Below the pieces are notes generated by a model, which was not told the origin of the DNA, made no database searches, and saw nothing but the letters and a program-made list of their open reading frames with translations. Below are positions 19,621 to 26,158 of a stretch of 64,000 nucleotides of DNA, in pieces (position 1 is the stretch's first letter; each line of letters begins with the position of its first letter). The translations under genes and the position numbers were made by a program. The stretch is from an uncultured Schlesneria sp. (GTDB lineage: Bacteria > Planctomycetota > Planctomycetia > Planctomycetales > Planctomycetaceae), in NCBI GenBank assembly GCA_903871875.1, contig CAIQIR010000084.1:1-64000 (forward strand). The letters are read 5' to 3'.

Positions 19621-19644
19621 TGGGCGATGAGGGATTCGAACCCC
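19621..19644. repeat. left attachment repeat (tRNA-Val 3' end copy)
   Basis: 24 bp identical to 26085-26108. It covers the discriminator base, the 3' acceptor strand and the T arm of tRNA-Val, read antisense. Sequence identity ends sharply on both sides. Confidence 0.9.
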
Positions 19645-19655
19645 AATCGAATGCT

Positions 19656-19850
19656 ATGGCAAAAACTGCGATTTCGCAAGAACGTGGCGCGCATTCCGGC
19701 GCGCGTGAGAATACCACTGCCGTAAATAACGGTCTAACGCCCACGCCGCCTGACAAGCTTTTGTCACGCCTTCTGGCAATCTGGGCGGAACTTACGAATG
19801 CAGACCGGCTGAGACTGATCCAAGCGGCCCAAGAACTGGTTCACGATTAA
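19656..19850 (+). CDS. displaced integrase C-terminal segment (or small orphan frame)
   Basis: The frame runs without a stop through the left attachment repeat and on to 19850, in the same phase as the integrase gene has at the right repeat. In the excised circle, codons from 19644 onward would directly continue the integrase, adding 68 residues that end in a helix LLSRLLAIWAELTNADRLRLIQAAQELVHD-like region (helix about 43-62 of this segment). Planctomycete integrases often end in a comparable short helical tail. As it stands, an ATG at 19656 could start a 64-residue product, but there is no good ribosome-binding site, so it is probably silent while integrated. Confidence 0.55.
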   Translation: MAKTAISQERGAHSGARENTTAVNNGLTPTPPDKLLSRLLAIWAELTNADRLRLIQAAQELVHD

Positions 19851-20170
19851 CTTTGGGAGGAACTTGTTGTCGGAGATAACAGCTCACGCTTTCTGGGGAG
19901 GACCAGCCATGATTGTCGCCCTGGTGCCATGCGTACATGTAAAGCATTGTTTCTCTGAAGTTTACTGTCGCCAATAAACTTTGGAATGAGCCTGCGGAGG
20001 TATAACTGTGGAATTCATGAAAAGTCAGATTCCATGCCCCCAAAGCAGTGTCATACAATTCAGAGCGCCGCTTTAAGATGAGACAGTTGGAAGTAACATC
20101 GCATTCACAATCACGGCGGCGACACAGCAAGTTCAATCGACGCGGAACCAACTCACACGGAGGTGGACTC
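19851..20170. other. element-internal noncoding stretch
   Basis: About 320 bp with no supportable gene. It ends in GGAGGTG, the ribosome-binding site of the next gene, and should hold its promoter. Confidence 0.5.
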
Positions 20171-20788
20171 ATGGTTCAAGAAATCTGCAACGTTGCCACG
20201 TTATCTGCTCAGGGGATCCAATTGGGAGACCCGTTGCTCCGGGCAGAGCTTGAGGCACGGATTGTGGCCGATCAACCACAAGACGAAATCGCGGACAGGA
20301 TGGGGTTACTACCCGAAGTCGTCGCTGAGTACGAGACCGCATTCTTCAATCATCGTGGCTTGCGTTGGGATCAGGGACCAGCGTGGCGGGAAATCGTTGG
20401 CTGGCCTGATGACGGCGTACTTGACCAGTATGACGTGCGAAAATTTTGGTTGATGGTGGCGTCCCATTTAGGGATGTATTTCCTACGCAAGTACTTGAAC
20501 AGTGTGAGTCGAAAGACTTTAAATAAAGAAGGACTTCTCGCTTACATGCGTAAGAACCGGCGGCTGCCGATTGGCATGAAAAGGCTCGCCGTACAGACGT
20601 TTTTCCCGCCGTTGAGGGGCGAACGGCAACCTGAGATATTCAACTGCAGAACTGGTGGGCACGAACATTGCAAAAAGGTCGATGACGAGGTTGCTGCGGT
20701 TATTTACGACCGGGTCGAATGGCACGATGCTGAGGAGCAGCGGCGAGTCAAGCTTGCGAGCCAACTCGTGGCTTCCGAAGGGCAGTAG
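20171..20788 (+). CDS. island protein with a short HTH-like domain, function unknown
   Basis: A 205-residue protein. GGAGGTG lies eight bases before the ATG at 20171, which rules out the longer upstream frame. The N-terminal part, ARIVADQPQDEIADRMG at 29-45 followed by VVAEYETAFFNHR, looks like a small helix-turn-helix and is repeated in the patatin gene next door (ARVLADQPQAKIAERMG). Proteins with this phrase are frequent in planctomycete and proteobacterial islands and may resemble small terminase-like DNA-binding domains. The C-terminal half is basic and unrecognised. Confidence 0.7.
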   Translation: MVQEICNVATLSAQGIQLGDPLLRAELEARIVADQPQDEIADRMGLLPEVVAEYETAFFNHRGLRWDQGPAWREIVGWPDDGVLDQYDVRKFWLMVASHLGMYFLRKYLNSVSRKTLNKEGLLAYMRKNRRLPIGMKRLAVQTFFPPLRGERQPEIFNCRTGGHEHCKKVDDEVAAVIYDRVEWHDAEEQRRVKLASQLVASEGQ

Positions 20789-21037
20789 GACGGGGCGAGT
20801 CGTTAGCGTCCACTGCGCCTGCAAAGAGAAAACTGATTCGTGAAGGTTTTGCTCAACGCCATGTTTAGTGTTGACCATAATCCAGATTCTTTATGACGAC
20901 GAATCATTGGCATGGGTCACGGTCGCCAAAGGACTCGTGTTGCTGACAAGCAGTGCCATTTATCTTCGATTGTGCTTCCCAGGCGTAGCACAATCGCCCC
21001 GAAGAATGCGAATCGAAGGCTATTAAGGCTCCACCAA

Positions 21038-22498
21038 ATGGTAAAAAGCCCTCCAAGGCGGCGAAAACCTGCGTATTCCGGCGTCTGTCCCACACCAGAT
21101 TGCCTCTGGAGACGCATTTGTGAGACCGATTTGCCGTCACTTTTGCAGAGCGATGAAGCATTTTCTGCCGCGCTCGCAATTCATTTAGGCGATGAGCTTG
21201 TTCGGTCTGAACTTCAAGCCCGTGTCTTGGCCGACCAGCCACAGGCCAAAATTGCTGAACGAATGGGTATCACGATCGACACTGTGGCTGATTACCATGA
21301 TCTCGCAACCGTACTGTCGGATGCAGAACAAGATGCCGATGGGCAACGGGCGATTGGTCAAGATGTCCTTCGAGGACGCCTGAAGTCTGCCGGCCATTCG
21401 CTGGCTGCTATCGACTGGGCTGTTCATCTCTTGTCCGAAAACGGACTTCTTCGTACGACGATCCTCAAGGAGAAACAAGTCAGGATTATTCGGCCTGGGG
21501 TGAGCGAGGCCAAGGCGCGAATGATCGATGTGCCGGCAGTATCCGCGACCGACCAGTTCTGGGAGCGGTGGCAATCCGGAGCCTTCGCCTGGTCACCACC
21601 AAAATCGCACGATCCATATCCCAGCAGGCCGACTCAGGACGATGTTTCGGCAGAGGTCGCTGACACTTCCCTCGCTTTGGTGATGAAAGGTGGCGGAATC
21701 AAAGGCCTCGCATACGTTGGGGCTCTAGAGATTCTCAGCAAGAAATACAAATTCAATTGGTTCATTGGCACATCCGCCGGGGCTATTACGGCGATCCTCC
21801 TTGCAGCTGGATATACGCACGATGAACTCCTGGAAATCATGAGGGGCAAAGACTTCCGAGATTTCTTTGATGCTAAATGGTATCAAATCCCCTTAAATCT
21901 GTTTTTCCACAAGGGGCTCCATCATGCCAACAGCTTTACGGATTGGATGGACGAACTTCTGGCCAAAAAGTTGAAGAGCCAACGTCGCGTGCGCCTGTCG
22001 GATCTACCCAACAGGGTGACCGTCTATGCAAGCAAGCGTGGGACCGGTGCATTGAAGTTTGACTCAATCGACAGTGACGCGGACGCAGCCTACGCAGCAC
22101 GATGCAGTATGTCGATTCCTTGGGTGTTTGTACCACAATCTAACCAAGGATTGAAGACCTACGATGGTGGGATTCAGCACAACTATCCAGTTGATAGGCT
22201 TCTTGAGGACTATCCGGGAACCAAGTTTATCAGCCTTTATCTTGGGGCAGCGATCTACGAACCAATCAAATCGACGTCAGTGCTTGCCGATCTGATTTCG
22301 ATTACAACGGAAGCCTCAGATCCAGATGCCGTCGACAAGTATCGAACATCCACTGTCGTCATTGATCCGCGCCCAATTGGGACGTTGGATTTCGGCCTCA
22401 CCTATAGCGAGAAAGAGTTCCTCCTCGCAACTGGACGCGCTGCGGCGTTGGTTCATCGATTCTTTGGATCACCCCGTTCTGAAGAAGTTGCGAGGTGA
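21038..22498 (+). CDS. patatin-like phospholipase with N-terminal HTH-like domain
   Basis: The catalytic parts of a patatin lipase are all present. Counting from ATG 21038, these are the glycine-rich oxyanion loop GGGIKG (218-223), the nucleophile elbow GTSAG with Ser246, and the catalytic dyad Asp376 in YDGGIQ. The product is about 486 residues. The first ~200 residues hold the HTH-like phrase shared with the preceding gene and a second helical part. An upstream ATG at 20912 extends the frame but its sequence is not protein-like; AAGG precedes 21038. It should hydrolyse membrane lipids. Only three bases separate it from the polymerase gene, so the two are translationally linked. Patatins are known effectors in phage defence (e.g. 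CBASS CapV), but no sensor or cyclase gene is here. Confidence 0.88.
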   Translation: MVKSPPRRRKPAYSGVCPTPDCLWRRICETDLPSLLQSDEAFSAALAIHLGDELVRSELQARVLADQPQAKIAERMGITIDTVADYHDLATVLSDAEQDADGQRAIGQDVLRGRLKSAGHSLAAIDWAVHLLSENGLLRTTILKEKQVRIIRPGVSEAKARMIDVPAVSATDQFWERWQSGAFAWSPPKSHDPYPSRPTQDDVSAEVADTSLALVMKGGGIKGLAYVGALEILSKKYKFNWFIGTSAGAITAILLAAGYTHDELLEIMRGKDFRDFFDAKWYQIPLNLFFHKGLHHANSFTDWMDELLAKKLKSQRRVRLSDLPNRVTVYASKRGTGALKFDSIDSDADAAYAARCSMSIPWVFVPQSNQGLKTYDGGIQHNYPVDRLLEDYPGTKFISLYLGAAIYEPIKSTSVLADLISITTEASDPDAVDKYRTSTVVIDPRPIGTLDFGLTYSEKEFLLATGRAAALVHRFFGSPRSEEVAR

Positions 22499-22501
22499 AG
22501 C

Positions 22502-24244
22502 ATGATCAGTTTTCTTTTTTGGCTGTTCCGAGAAATCTGGGTGATCGACTTCGAATTCTATGCACCTGACGGTGAGCGTCCAAAACCGCTTTGCATGGTG
22601 GCACGGGAACTTCGGAGTGAGCGTCGGCTTCGAGTTTGGGGCGATCAATTGAAATTGCCGCCATTCGATCTGGGGCCGGATGTCCTGTTCGTCGCCTATT
22701 ACGCATCTGCTGAAATTGGATGCTTCATTGAACTCGGCTGGCCAACGCCAGCGCGAGTTTTAGACCTGTTCGTGGAGTTTCGAAATATTACGAATGGGTT
22801 GACGACGCCTTGCGGCTCAGGGCTGTTGGGTGCCATGAGTTTCTTCGGACTCGATTCGATCGAATTTGCCGAGAAAAACTCGATGCGAGAGCTCGCAATG
22901 CGTGGTGGTGAGTATACGGAATCGGAACGGTTGGCATTGATCGACTACTGTGAAGCAGACGTAGATGCCGTCGCAGCCTTGTTGCGATCGATGTCGCCGA
23001 ACATCGATCTCGCCCGCGCACTGATACGCGGGCGTTACATGAGCGCCGCGGCCCGAATGGAAGCGACCGGAATCCCTATCGACGTGGAATATATGCGGCG
23101 ATTGCAGACAAGCTGGGATTCAATCAAGGACCGCCTTATTGATGCAGTGGATGCGGATTACGGGGTCTATGTTGTGGCGAACGGGAGTCCACAGAAGTCA
23201 TTTTCGTCGAACCGCTTCGCCGAATGGCTCACAAGAAAAAACATCCCTTGGCCGCATCTTGAGTCAGGCAACCTTGATCTGTCGGACGATTGTTTCCGGG
23301 AGATGTCGAAAAAGTATTCCAGTGTGGCTCCCCTCCGGGAACTCCGGTACTCCCTTTCGAAAATGCGGTTGAATGATTTGGCCGTTGGATCAGACGACCG
23401 CAATCGAACCCTTTTGTCGGCCTTTCGGGCAGTGACCGGTCGGAACCAGCCTTCGAATGCCAAGTTCATTTTTGGACCGTCGTGCTGGCTTCGGGGCTTG
23501 ATCAAGCCGCCTAAAGGATGGGCGATCGCGTATATCGACTGGTCTGCACAGGAGATTGGAATCGCCGCGAAACTGTCGGGTGACGTCAACATGCAGGATG
23601 CCTACCTTTCAGGAGACCCGTACCTTTGGCTGGGCAAAATGAGCGGCGTGATCCCCAGCGATGCGACGAAGAAAACTCATCCCGAATTGCGAGATGTGTT
23701 TAAAGTGGTTTACCTCGCCGCAAATTATGGCATGGGTGAGCGCAGCTTGGCGCAGTTAATCGGTCAGACTGAGGCACATGCGAGGGAACTGCTGCGGATG
23801 CACCGGGAACGGTTTCCAACGTTCTGGGCCTGGTCTGATAGTGCCGTCGATCATGCCATGCTCAAGGGTTGGTTGACGACGGTTTTCGGCTGGGAACTGC
23901 ATGTTCGTCCAGATACCAAACCAACGAGTCTGCGGAACTTTCCAGTCCAGGCGAATGGCGCGGAAATGCTTCGCCTGGCGTGCTGCCTGGCGACAGAACG
24001 AGGTATCCGGGTTTGTGCTCCGGTTCACGATGCCCTGCTGGTTGAGGGGGCAGATGCCGAGATCGATGATGATGTTCGTGCGACACAGGCTGCGATGCAG
24101 GAAGCGTCGGCAACTGTGCTTGACGGCTTTGTGTTGCGGACTGATGTGAAGGTCATCCGCTATCCCGATCGTTACATGGACCCACGTGGTGAAAAAATGT
24201 GGAACCTTGTGGGCCAGCTCCTGAACGAATGCGATCCGAGTTAA
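22502..24244 (+). CDS. family A DNA polymerase with 3'-5' exonuclease domain
   Basis: A 580-residue protein. The N-terminal exonuclease has DFE at 16-18 (motif I), YYASAE with Glu71 where an Asp is usual (motif II) and YCEAD with Tyr149/Asp153 (motif III). The polymerase has motif A YIDWSAQE (Asp346), motif B with Arg397, Lys401 and Tyr409-Gly410 in the usual spacing, and motif C VHDA with His509/Asp510. There is no 5'-3' nuclease domain, as in phage-type enzymes. It could replicate the excised element. It follows the patatin gene by three bases, and a nested inverted repeat follows its stop. Confidence 0.92.
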   Translation: MISFLFWLFREIWVIDFEFYAPDGERPKPLCMVARELRSERRLRVWGDQLKLPPFDLGPDVLFVAYYASAEIGCFIELGWPTPARVLDLFVEFRNITNGLTTPCGSGLLGAMSFFGLDSIEFAEKNSMRELAMRGGEYTESERLALIDYCEADVDAVAALLRSMSPNIDLARALIRGRYMSAAARMEATGIPIDVEYMRRLQTSWDSIKDRLIDAVDADYGVYVVANGSPQKSFSSNRFAEWLTRKNIPWPHLESGNLDLSDDCFREMSKKYSSVAPLRELRYSLSKMRLNDLAVGSDDRNRTLLSAFRAVTGRNQPSNAKFIFGPSCWLRGLIKPPKGWAIAYIDWSAQEIGIAAKLSGDVNMQDAYLSGDPYLWLGKMSGVIPSDATKKTHPELRDVFKVVYLAANYGMGERSLAQLIGQTEAHARELLRMHRERFPTFWAWSDSAVDHAMLKGWLTTVFGWELHVRPDTKPTSLRNFPVQANGAEMLRLACCLATERGIRVCAPVHDALLVEGADAEIDDDVRATQAAMQEASATVLDGFVLRTDVKVIRYPDRYMDPRGEKMWNLVGQLLNECDPS

Positions 24245-24260
24245 TTGAAACGGTCGCGAA

Positions 24261-24325
24261 GCCACCGTCGACTTTTCGTCGAGTCAGCCACCGACTTTTT
24301 GTCGGTGGCCCTTCGACGAAAAGTC
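24261..24325. repeat. nested inverted repeat with internal direct repeats
   Basis: An outer 13-bp inverted repeat (GACTTTTCGTCGA at 24270-24282 with TCGACGAAAAGTC at 24313-24325) encloses a perfect 9-bp hairpin with a T5 loop (24287-24309). The start of the outer arm and the hairpin arm share the direct repeat GCCACCG. It lies between the polymerase stop and the winged-helix gene. It could be a terminator, an operator or an origin-like structure. Confidence 0.75.
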
Positions 24326-24379
24326 CGACGCGGTCAGTATTATCTTATTTGTCTTCTCTCTTCTGGTGTCTTTGTAAAT

Positions 24380-24766
24380 ATGTCAACCTTCGCATTGACC
24401 GATTCACAGATCCAACTTTCGGAAGCCAGTGTCGCACGCCGACACCAACAATCCCAAAGGAGGTCACGTGAATTCTTGCGTGGCCCCGTCCCAATAAATT
24501 GGCTCGCACATGCAGCTCGTCAAGGGAAACTGGCACAGGCAGCAGGCATTCTTGTTTGGTTCCGTTACGGTTGCCTCCAAACTCGCCACGGTGACAAACT
24601 CAATCTGACCGTTTCTGCAAATCAATACGAGCGATTCGGTTTGAGCGCAACAACATTCAGCCGTGGCTTGCGCAAACTGGAAGCGGCTGGCCTGATCACC
24701 GTCAGTCGATCGCCGGGTCGAAAACCACAAATTTCGATCGTGTCAGACTTTGAGGATAAACCTTGA
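24380..24766 (+). CDS. winged-helix DNA-binding protein of the element
   Basis: A 128-residue protein from ATG 24380. It has an N-terminal basic helix (ARRHQQSQRRSREFLRG), a helical pair (INWLAHAARQGKLAQAAGILVWFRYG), and a wing-type helix-turn-helix near the C-terminus (FGLSATTFSRGLRKLEAAGLITVSRSPGRKP region, about 92-122). Similar proteins recur beside integrases in planctomycete islands. It probably binds the repeat array just upstream, as repressor, excision factor or replication initiator; the sequence does not decide which. Confidence 0.78.
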   Translation: MSTFALTDSQIQLSEASVARRHQQSQRRSREFLRGPVPINWLAHAARQGKLAQAAGILVWFRYGCLQTRHGDKLNLTVSANQYERFGLSATTFSRGLRKLEAAGLITVSRSPGRKPQISIVSDFEDKP

Positions 24767-24850
24767 ACTCGTGGTCTAAAATCTGTGTCAAATCACGCTA
24801 TACGTACCCTGTAAACTCAAAGCTTAAAAATTCATTGAAGGATTAAATCA

Positions 24851-26125
24851 ATGGCTTCTGTCATAAACGACCCAGACAATCGAAAGCGTGTCGTTTTCAA
24901 GGGGTTGGACGACAAACGGCGGTCTATTCGCCTCGGGAAGATGGCGCGCCGCGATGCTGACAGCATCGCCCGGCATGTTGATGCCATTCTTGTTGCCGAA
25001 CTCTCTCGTTCACCGTTGGCTGCCTCGACAGCGGAGTGGCTGGGTGCAATCCCCGATGCGATGCACAAAAAGCTCGCGGCTGTCGGACTTGTGCATGCTC
25101 GCGGAACGGTGGCGGCCCCAACGCTCGGCCCATTCTTGGATACGTATCTCGCTCGCCGCGATGATGCTAAAGCGAGTACTCGGGTGTTCTACGGTCACAC
25201 CGCTCGGAACCTCAAGGAATTCTTCACTGACCGACGTTTGTTGGAGACGATCAACCCCGCCGAAGCTGACGACTTCCGGCGATGGCTCGTCACATCGGAG
25301 AAACTTGCTCCGGCGACCGTGGCGCGACGATGCAGTTTGGCTCGGACATTTTTTCGGGATGCTGTACGGCGTCGTTTGATCGAAAGCAACCCGTTCGAGG
25401 GCGTCGGCGGCGGCCCTAAAAACAACCCAGAACGCTCTCGGTTCATCGATAAGGAAACCGTCGCGAAAGTGATTGACGCTTGCCCGAATGCCGAATGGCG
25501 ATGTCTGGTGGCGTTGTCCCGATTTGCGGGTTTGCGAGTGCCATCGGAGGCCCTGCTGCTGAAATGGGAGGATATTCACTGGGACCAATCCCGCCTGATG
25601 ATTCACTCACCAAAGACGGAGCACCATGCCGGTAAGGCGACGCGGGTCTGCCCCATCTTTCCGGAACTTCGCGAGTACCTCGACGAACTGGATCAAATTA
25701 CGGCTCCGGGTACCGTCTACGTATTGGAACGCCTGCGCCACAACAGTGCCAAGCAATGTGATTGGAAAGCCACGAACCTGCGAACCACTTTCCACAAAAT
25801 CATCGAACGGGCTGGCCTGACTCCCTGGCCACGCCTCTGGCACAACATGCGAGCCAGTCGGCAGACCGAATTGGTGGAAGAATTTCCCGCCCACGTGGTT
25901 TCGTCCTGGCTGGGGAACACGGAACGCGTTGCCGAGAAACATTACCTGCAGGTTCTCGATTCCCACTTCGAAAAAGCGGCGCAAATTCCGGCGCGCACTG
26001 TGCGTGAATCGACAGTTTTGGAGGCGCATGGAGATACAGAAAACAAAGAAACCCCTTGTTTCCAAGGGGTTTCTTGTGGACTGATGGGCGATGAGGGATT
26101 CGAACCCCCGACATCCACGGTGTAA
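24851..26125 (+). CDS. tyrosine recombinase (integrase) of the element
   Basis: The 424-residue protein has an N-terminal arm and SAM-like core-binding domain (about 90-180), then a catalytic domain with Arg229 (FAGLRVPSE), Lys255, His331-x-x-Arg334 (HNMRAS), Trp353 in the H/W position and the nucleophile Tyr365 (KHYLQV). GAAGGA lies upstream of the ATG. The last ~27 codons pass through the tRNA-Val terminator and into antisense tRNA (GDEGFEPPTSTV), so the C-terminus in the integrated state is a by-product of insertion. In the circular form the frame would continue from 19644 to 19850. It is convergent with the tRNA gene. Confidence 0.93.
   Translation: MASVINDPDNRKRVVFKGLDDKRRSIRLGKMARRDADSIARHVDAILVAELSRSPLAASTAEWLGAIPDAMHKKLAAVGLVHARGTVAAPTLGPFLDTYLARRDDAKASTRVFYGHTARNLKEFFTDRRLLETINPAEADDFRRWLVTSEKLAPATVARRCSLARTFFRDAVRRRLIESNPFEGVGGGPKNNPERSRFIDKETVAKVIDACPNAEWRCLVALSRFAGLRVPSEALLLKWEDIHWDQSRLMIHSPKTEHHAGKATRVCPIFPELREYLDELDQITAPGTVYVLERLRHNSAKQCDWKATNLRTTFHKIIERAGLTPWPRLWHNMRASRQTELVEEFPAHVVSSWLGNTERVAEKHYLQVLDSHFEKAAQIPARTVRESTVLEAHGDTENKETPCFQGVSCGLMGDEGFEPPTSTV
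26046..26075 (-). terminator. terminator of tRNA-Val, inside the integrase frame
   Basis: A perfect 13-bp stem (AAGAAACCCCTTG with CAAGGGGTTTCTT) and 4-nt loop, nine bases beyond the tRNA 3' end. On the minus strand it runs into TTTGTTTTC. The element supplies it, replacing the one lost by insertion. Confidence 0.75.
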
Positions 26126-26158
26126 GCATGGCGCTCTAACCAGCTGAGCTAATCGCCC
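26085..26158 (-). tRNA. tRNA-Val (anticodon UAC)
   Basis: A 74-nt cloverleaf with acceptor GGGCGAT/ATCGCCC, D arm GCTC..GAGC, anticodon stem CCATG/CGTGG with loop CTTACAC (anticodon TAC, plus-strand positions 26122-26124), T arm GGGGG TTCGAAT CCCTC and discriminator A. CCA is not encoded. The 3' 24 bases are the attachment core of the element at its left, so the insertion restores a complete tRNA. Confidence 0.95.

What the first reader, a model, noticed from the sequence alone, without database searches (positions are those of the whole stretch)
24851..26125. Integration splits the integrase gene: its 3' end is swapped between integrated and circular states
Seen: the integrase frame enters the 24-bp attachment core (26085-26108) in the phase GDEGFEP and ends in antisense tRNA-Val. 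At the left end the same core is followed, in the same phase, by an open coding stretch to 19850. Joining 24851-26107 to 19644-19850 gives one uninterrupted frame of about 487 residues, ending in a helical tail like those of other planctomycete integrases. Inference: the long protein is made only from the circle, and the integrated form makes a version with a 5-residue PTSTV end. This could be a built-in switch biasing the enzyme towards integration or excision.
Basis: partly seen in the sequence, partly recalled or inferred. Interest (0 to 1): 0.8.

Follow-up and report, generated by a model that had tools for sequence, protein, structure and literature searches.

The report
Integrase swaps tail when inserting
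A mobile element in what is probably a planctomycete bacterium carries its own landing site inside its integrase gene, so inserting into a tRNA gene cuts a conserved tail off the enzyme, and many related elements are built the same way.

Summary
The 24-bp core (19621-19644, 26085-26108) lies in the 3' part of a tyrosine integrase. Integrated, the gene ends GDEGFEP-PTSTV (424 aa) in antisense tRNA-Val; joined across the core the frame runs 487 aa, ending in a 68-residue tail. Of 32 elements (window included) with an att repeat of at least 15 nt found without using the tail (24 + 8), 29 carry a homologous tail in the integrase's phase; 3 do not. Six more pairs located by the tail have exact cores in matching phase. 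The tail is bipartite: a DNA-conserved arm-type site, repeated across the core, and a protein-conserved helix. Unsplit integrase-core-tail genes occur in nine virus contigs, four with terminal repeats (free DNA), and a tenth, terminally repeated contig has an unrecognised tail. So the long form belongs to free element, the short form to the integrated one; catalytic residues stay in both. That the swap controls direction is untested, and no expression or activity data exist. Closest known: archaeal suicidal integrases and mycobacteriophage integration-dependent repressors. New variant of a known kind.

The parts
24851..26108 (+). integrase codons shared by both forms (419 codons + 1 base); conserved RVPSE (R at 229), K255, HNMR (331-334), W353, Y365 (codon 25943-25945) all lie here
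   Evidence: assignment of catalytic residues from recalled tyrosine-recombinase motifs
26108..26125 (+). 3' end of the integrated-form gene (PTSTV-stop); all but the first base is tRNA sequence beyond the core
26085..26108 (.). attR core copy, 24 bp, = 3' end of tRNA-Val
19621..19644 (.). attL core copy, 24 bp
26085..26158 (-). tRNA-Val(tac), target gene, kept intact
19644..19850 (+). tail codons (68 residues + stop), joined to the integrase only in the circle
19752..19847 (+). tail helix module (DKLLSRLLAIWAELTNADRLRLIQAAQELVHD); the aligned module is conserved at second codon positions across 42 tails; helical nature is a reading of the sequence pattern
19689..19702 (+). arm-type site candidate, left (GCGCATTCCGGCGC), inside tail codons
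   Evidence: (D11)
25981..25994 (+). arm-type site candidate, right (GCAAATTCCGGCGC), inside integrase codons in another reading phase
   Evidence: (D11)
26046..26075 (-). hairpin with T-rich 3' side on the tRNA strand; likely a terminator that the element supplies to the tRNA, encoded antisense in int
19621..26108 (.). the integrated element, repeat spacing 6464 bp

Best explanation
The element's attP is nested in its integrase gene: arm-type site, tRNA-terminator hairpin, tRNA-derived core and second arm-type site are all read as integrase codons, followed by a conserved helical tail. In the free circle the gene is continuous and encodes the long integrase. Recombination at the core with a tRNA 3' end puts the tail at the far end of the element (attL), where it has no conserved start, and gives the integrase a few tRNA-antisense codons and a host stop. 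The catalytic part is untouched, so the short form could still act, for example in excision. Shown by sequence: nesting, phase, conservation, exchange, unsplit genes in what is probably free DNA. Inferred: the tail works in the free state, most likely promoting or licensing attP x attB integration, and its loss on integration biases the system against repeated forward reaction.
For: Set A: 24 of 70 integrases (68 distinct) had an att repeat of at least 15 nt upstream; 21 of 24 read into a homologous tail in phase; leave-one-out found 21 of 21 in phase, 19 with E < 1e-3 (L043 0.0011, L079 0.0059), no significant hit in the five other frames. Independent set B (84 integrases): 8 had such a repeat, 8 of 8 in phase, E 9e-18 to 0.018. 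Six further pairs found through the tail have 20-30 nt exact cores in the same phase. Codon information in 42 tails: arm stretch conserved at all three positions, helix at second positions with weak third positions. Left and right arm sites match within an element better than across elements (14.6 against 12.8 of 16; codon-shuffled 11.7; 32 elements). Unsplit genes with a recognised tail in 9 virus contigs, 4 with terminal repeats of 44-119 bp. Integrase stop or frame overlaps an antisense tRNA in 117 of 152 distinct integrases, 12 tRNA types. Tail starts: ATG before the helix in 9 of 42, any ATG/GTG/TTG in 26, start with SD-like in 3.
Against: Three of 24 set-A pairs lack an in-phase tail (L046 has one in another frame and an early int stop; L069 and L092 have none). 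L226 has int and tail out of frame. In 46 of 70 set-A and 76 of 84 set-B integrases no repeat of 15 nt was found; 19 of the 46 had at least 10 kb of upstream DNA searched and 18 of the 76 at least 9 kb; six of the 19 were later resolved farther upstream, the others are open. dN/dS in the one close pair is 0.06 for int, 0.23 for the linker, 0.56 for the whole tail and 0.30 for the helix on few changes, so the tail evolves faster than the enzyme. The arm motif is within 2 mismatches on both sides in 16 of 24 set-A elements only. No element was seen in both states. No expression or activity data. The helix also ends an ion channel, a kinase and an aminotransferase, so it is not integrase-specific.
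Confidence: 0.65

Rival explanations
1. No switch: attP is nested in int only for compactness, so that enzyme and site travel as one cassette. The tail helps in the free state, and its loss on integration has no regulatory meaning.
For: Arm sites, core and hairpin are packed into int codons; catalytic residues lie before the core in both forms; integrases sit at 12 kinds of tRNA.
Against: The helix is kept at protein level in highly diverged elements and is removed by integration, so two enzyme forms would alternate.
Confidence: 0.3
2. The tail is a destabilising signal, as in mycobacteriophage BPs: the free-element integrase is short-lived, the integrated form stable.
For: Same logic is described for the BPs repressor, and the BPs integrase has a C-terminal proteolysis signal (PMC4557955 passages).
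Against: Tail ends are not conserved; 1 of 42 ends in AA; the conserved part is an internal helix.
Confidence: 0.12
3. Tail conservation is only DNA-level (attP arm sites), and the open frame is incidental.
For: The GGAESGA stretch is conserved at all three codon positions and repeated on the other side of the core.
Against: The helix lies beyond the arm site and shows a coding pattern: strong second, weak third positions; phase kept in 29 of 32 elements.
Confidence: 0.04
4. The tail is expressed as a separate small protein from attL in the integrated state, for example as a directionality factor.
For: The window tail has an in-frame ATG at 19656-19658; 26 of 42 tails have some ATG, GTG or TTG before the helix.
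Against: ATG in only 9 of 42 tails, start plus SD-like in 3 of 42; unsplit fusions exist.
Confidence: 0.03

Closest known systems
Archaeal SSV-type (suicidal) integrases
   Same: att site lies inside the integrase gene, and integration separates two parts of the gene.
   Different: There the split separates an N-terminal part from the catalytic C-terminal part, and several truncated forms could not recombine in vitro; here only a tail after the catalytic Tyr is exchanged. The review (PMC8371274, passages seen) says self-disrupting recombinases are found exclusively in archaea; these are bacterial.
Integration-dependent immunity of mycobacteriophage BPs and relatives
   Same: attP inside a coding frame; prophage form is shorter because a host stop follows the core; two forms of one protein mark free and integrated states.
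   Different: There the split gene is the repressor and the lost part carries an ssrA-like tag (PMC4557955, PMC9934374, passages seen); here it is the integrase and 1 of 42 tails ends in AA.
Tyrosine integrases with arm-type sites flanking a tRNA core (for example oenophages)
   Same: Direct-repeat arm sites on both sides of a tRNA-derived core (PMC8074189, passages seen).
   Different: In the oenophage passages attP is described upstream of int; here both arms and the core are integrase codons.

Membership tests
Tyrosine recombinase (phage integrase) | Catalytic domain with conserved R, K, H/R, W/H and Tyr | tested here: met
   PF00589 5.5e-9; phrog_1 1.1e-35; RVPSE, HNMR, W353, Y365; R229, K255, R334, W353, Y365 invariant in A2
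SSV-type suicidal integrase | Recombination site inside the integrase gene | tested here: met
SSV-type suicidal integrase | Integration cuts the catalytic domain from the N-terminal part | tested here: not met
   the catalytic motifs lie before the core
SSV-type suicidal integrase | Archaeal element | tested here: not met
   of the 80 named relatives kept, 76 titles name planctomycete taxa (by recalled taxonomy) and 4 say only 'bacterium'
BPs-type integration-dependent system | attP within the repressor gene | tested here: not met
   attP is within the integrase
BPs-type integration-dependent system | Integrated form is shorter because of a host stop after the core | tested here: met
   424 against 487 aa
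BPs-type integration-dependent system | Long form carries an ssrA-like C-terminal tag | tested here: not met
   window tail ends VHD; 1 of 42 tails ends AA; proteolysis itself not testable here
Arm-site dependent integrase | Repeated arm-type sites on both sides of the core | tested here: met
   window 19689-19702 and 25981-25994; binding itself not testable here

The most novel reading that the evidence does not exclude
Planctomycetes hold a large, multi-lineage class of bacterial self-splitting integrases in which integration itself swaps a dedicated helical domain off the enzyme, so that the site of the reaction encodes its own directionality switch; the helix is a portable module that at least one other integrase family with different arm sites has taken up.
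Probability: 0.4. Interest if true: 0.87.

Novelty: new variant of a known kind. Interest (0 to 1): 0.77.

Why it matters
It would extend self-splitting integrases, reviewed as exclusive to archaea (PMC8371274, passage), to bacteria on a wide scale, and in a form where the enzyme keeps its active site and only changes its tail. It makes a clear test possible: does a single recombination event, with no extra factor, change which way an integrase works? It also warns that integrase annotations ending in tRNA-antisense peptides (GFEPxTS and the like) can be truncated versions of longer proteins, and it gives a way to find the far end of such elements by their tails.

Tried and rejected
Tried without result: genome-contig scan with the single protein (no relative; the alignment scan worked). 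Plasmid and phage collections: 3 and 4 records, all at or below 29% identity. Viral scan with the tail alignment could not be run. PDB search with the tail: 12 weak matches, best E 0.024, a TRAP-transporter subunit; with the integrase: none. Structure prediction of the unsplit protein of L208 was never accepted, so nothing is said about the fold beyond sequence pattern. Empty site: one of 12 scanned loci with the right-flank LRR gene (L354, G007) has tRNA-Val(tac) beside it, with another left flank and no ABC gene; no integrase was searched for there; none of nine scanned loci with the left-flank ABC gene has a tRNA (a tenth, L379, not scanned). So a fully syntenic empty site was not found. 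Of the 24 lax 'fused' hits I kept L204, L206, L208, L217 and the tandem case L145; the rest look like arm-site codons in the linker. Of eight stretches fetched for far tails (L247-L254), six were paired with an integrase; L248 and L253 were not, L253 because its core peptide differs by eye from that of L045. Of 14 stretches fetched for other integrase families, only L400 gave a clear att pair; in 7 no tail was found by the script's pattern and in 6 no repeat of 16 nt was reported. No paper on this arrangement in planctomycetes was found in ten searches of an open-licence library. Passages of PMC4739549 and PMC10111431 were seen and held nothing of use. Older work on Streptomyces and Pseudomonas elements with attP at the int 3' end is recalled only and was not read.

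Full report
WHAT WAS CHECKED. The window holds an element of about 6.46 kb between two exact 24-bp repeats, 19621-19644 and 26085-26108. The right copy is the 3' end of a complete tRNA-Val(tac), 26085-26158, minus strand. The integrase ORF 24851-26125 (424 aa; PF00589 5.5e-9; phrog_1 1.1e-35) runs through the right copy as GDEGFEP and stops in the antisense tRNA after PTSTV. The left copy is followed in the same phase by codons to a stop at 19850. Joining right end to left end in a script gives 1464 nt, 487 residues, one stop at the end. Conserved motifs RVPSE, HNMR, W353 and Y365 lie before the core, so both forms keep the active site (residue roles recalled).

THE TAIL IS REAL. A search of 149 relatives gave matches in 136, many of them weak. 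I fetched 60 stretches and, with eight loci and the window, examined 70 integrases, 68 distinct. In 24 of 70 a repeat of at least 15 nt matching the tRNA end region lies in the upstream DNA held; 21 of 24 read, in the integrase's phase, into tails that align with each other. Leave-one-out HMMs recover 21 of 21 in that phase, 19 below E 1e-3 (L043 0.0011, L079 0.0059; window 6e-8), with no significant hit in the five other frames. The three exceptions are L046 (tail present in another frame, early stop in int), L069 and L092 (no recognisable tail). An independent set of 84 further integrases (loci, those with the same last 60 residues as set A dropped) had 8 such repeats; 8 of 8 carry the tail in phase (E 9e-18 to 0.018). 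In the other 46 and 76 integrases no such repeat was found in the DNA held; 19 of the 46 had at least 10 kb upstream and 18 of the 76 at least 9 kb, so contig ends do not explain all of them. Six of those 19 were resolved farther upstream through the tail itself and so test only core and phase: exact cores of 20-30 nt and equal phase in 6 of 6, among them L071/L249, on the contig that names as Blastopirellula marina DSM 3645 (L193).

TWO KINDS OF CONSERVATION. Over 42 tails (21 + 8 + 6 + 7 unsplit), the GGAESGA stretch has high information at all three codon positions (third positions 0.59-1.51 bits), whereas in the helix D..L..lv..W..L....R..I the second positions are high (1.8-1.95 bits at four key hydrophobic sites) and third positions mostly below 0.35, apart from the Trp codon (1.62) and a few at 0.4-0.65. 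The first is a DNA site: a 14-bp motif, GCnnAWTCCGGYGC with element-specific variants, lies mostly 95-150 bp before the core in int and 40-90 bp after it in the tail, within 2 mismatches on both sides in 16 of 24 set-A elements; in the window the two copies are read in different phases. Own left and right sites match 14.6 of 16 on average, sites of different elements 12.8, codon-shuffled 11.7; own beats cross in 192, ties in 43 and loses in 21 of 256 comparisons (32 elements). I read these as arm-type sites for the integrase. The helix is protein-level. In the one close pair dN/dS is 0.06 (int), 0.23 (linker), 0.56 (whole tail), 0.30 (helix), on few changes: constraint on the helix is supported mainly by the deep alignment.

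UNSPLIT GENES IN FREE DNA. Virus-contig scans gave integrases with core and tail in one frame in nine contigs (seven distinct tails): L204/L206, L208, L217, L266, L271/L273, L280, L325 (HMM E between 1e-15 for L208 and 2e-4 for L217, with L325 weakest at 0.005). Four of these nine contigs have exact terminal repeats of 44, 119, 80 and 69 bp; a tenth (L225/L301) with an unrecognised tail has 99 bp. Of all 12 contigs so examined, 5 have terminal repeats; of ten control contigs chosen because the integrase ends in a tRNA or another short end, none has (Fisher 0.04). The controls are few and chosen by me; that terminal repeats mean free DNA is inference. L226 has int and tail out of frame, against the rule.

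FAMILY-WIDE DESIGN. Of 152 distinct integrases in sets A and B, 117 overlap an antisense tRNA (108 stop inside it, 9 pass through), in 12 tRNA types, Val 48 the commonest; 24 had no tRNA called, 8 ran into a contig end, 3 had a tRNA near but not overlapped. Within 90 nt of the tRNA end lies, in 85 of 117, a terminator-like hairpin on the tRNA strand (143 of 351 in shuffles, so the test is lax), in the window 26046-26075; I think it replaces the tRNA's own terminator. A second integrase family shows the same plan: L400, PF00589 3.6e-14 but no significant BLASTP match to the window protein (best E 0.77), 50-bp core in tRNA-Phe, 14.5 kb, tail in phase, another repeat of 19 bp on both sides of the core. 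By eye, tail-like helices follow tRNA-antisense peptides in several more loci; others end an ion channel, a kinase and an aminotransferase.

MECHANISM. Shown from sequence: attP is nested in int; integration exchanges the C-terminus; the tail is conserved as protein; the long frame exists in what is probably free DNA. Inferred: the long enzyme acts in the free state, the short one in the integrated state, and loss of the tail biases direction. Rivals are compactness without a switch, a destabilising tail, DNA-only conservation and separate expression of the tail; they are weighed in their own section. Few usable starts in the tails (ATG in 9 of 42, any start codon in 26, start plus SD-like in 3) speak against the last.

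COMPARISON. Archaeal SSV-type integrases also carry att in the gene, but lose the link to the catalytic domain; a review states that self-disrupting recombinases are exclusive to archaea (PMC8371274, passages). Mycobacteriophage BPs and relatives put attP in the repressor, and the lost part is an ssrA-like tag (PMC4557955 and PMC9934374, passages); here the gene is the integrase and 1 of 42 tails ends in AA. It works like both in part and is a member of neither. Hence: new variant of a known kind.

LIMITS. No reads, transcripts, proteins or assays; one genome per species; no element seen in both states; no fully syntenic empty site; structure prediction never ran.

Noticed in passing
window 20912-22498 and 22502-24244: Cargo of the element: a patatin-like phospholipase (PF01734; PADLOC phospholipase effector 8.6e-10) next to a family-A DNA polymerase (PF00476; PADLOC RTasPolA 1.7e-19), with an HTH-like protein at 24245-24766; possible defence or replication cargo.
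   Followed up: partly
L400 (G115:C1:3841500-3861400): A different tyrosine-integrase family (PF00589 3.6e-14, no significant BLASTP match to the window protein) with a 50-bp tRNA-Phe core shows the same split and an in-phase tail, with its own repeat on both sides.
   Followed up: partly
L388:1175-2104, L392:1296-2699, L399:2-1387: The tail helix also ends an ion channel, a Ser/Thr kinase and an aminotransferase: a portable planctomycete C-terminal module, or scars of integration.
   Followed up: partly
window 26046-26075: Strong hairpin followed by T-rich DNA on the tRNA strand, inside int codons; terminator-like hairpins in 85 of 117 relatives, 143 of 351 shuffles.
   Followed up: partly
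L145, L082, L248: Possible tandem elements: at L145 a second, partial integrase frame runs in phase into the neighbour's tail; at L082 two integrases lie in tandem with different phases; at L248 two very similar tails.
   Followed up: no
L396 (G000:C162:54700-57300) and L002 (G000:C177): The window's own genome has another tail-like stretch and an integrase remnant with two internal stops.
   Followed up: no
G169 (L277, L427): A probable provirus contig with integrase at one end and a tail at the other, sharing a 14-nt core.
   Followed up: partly
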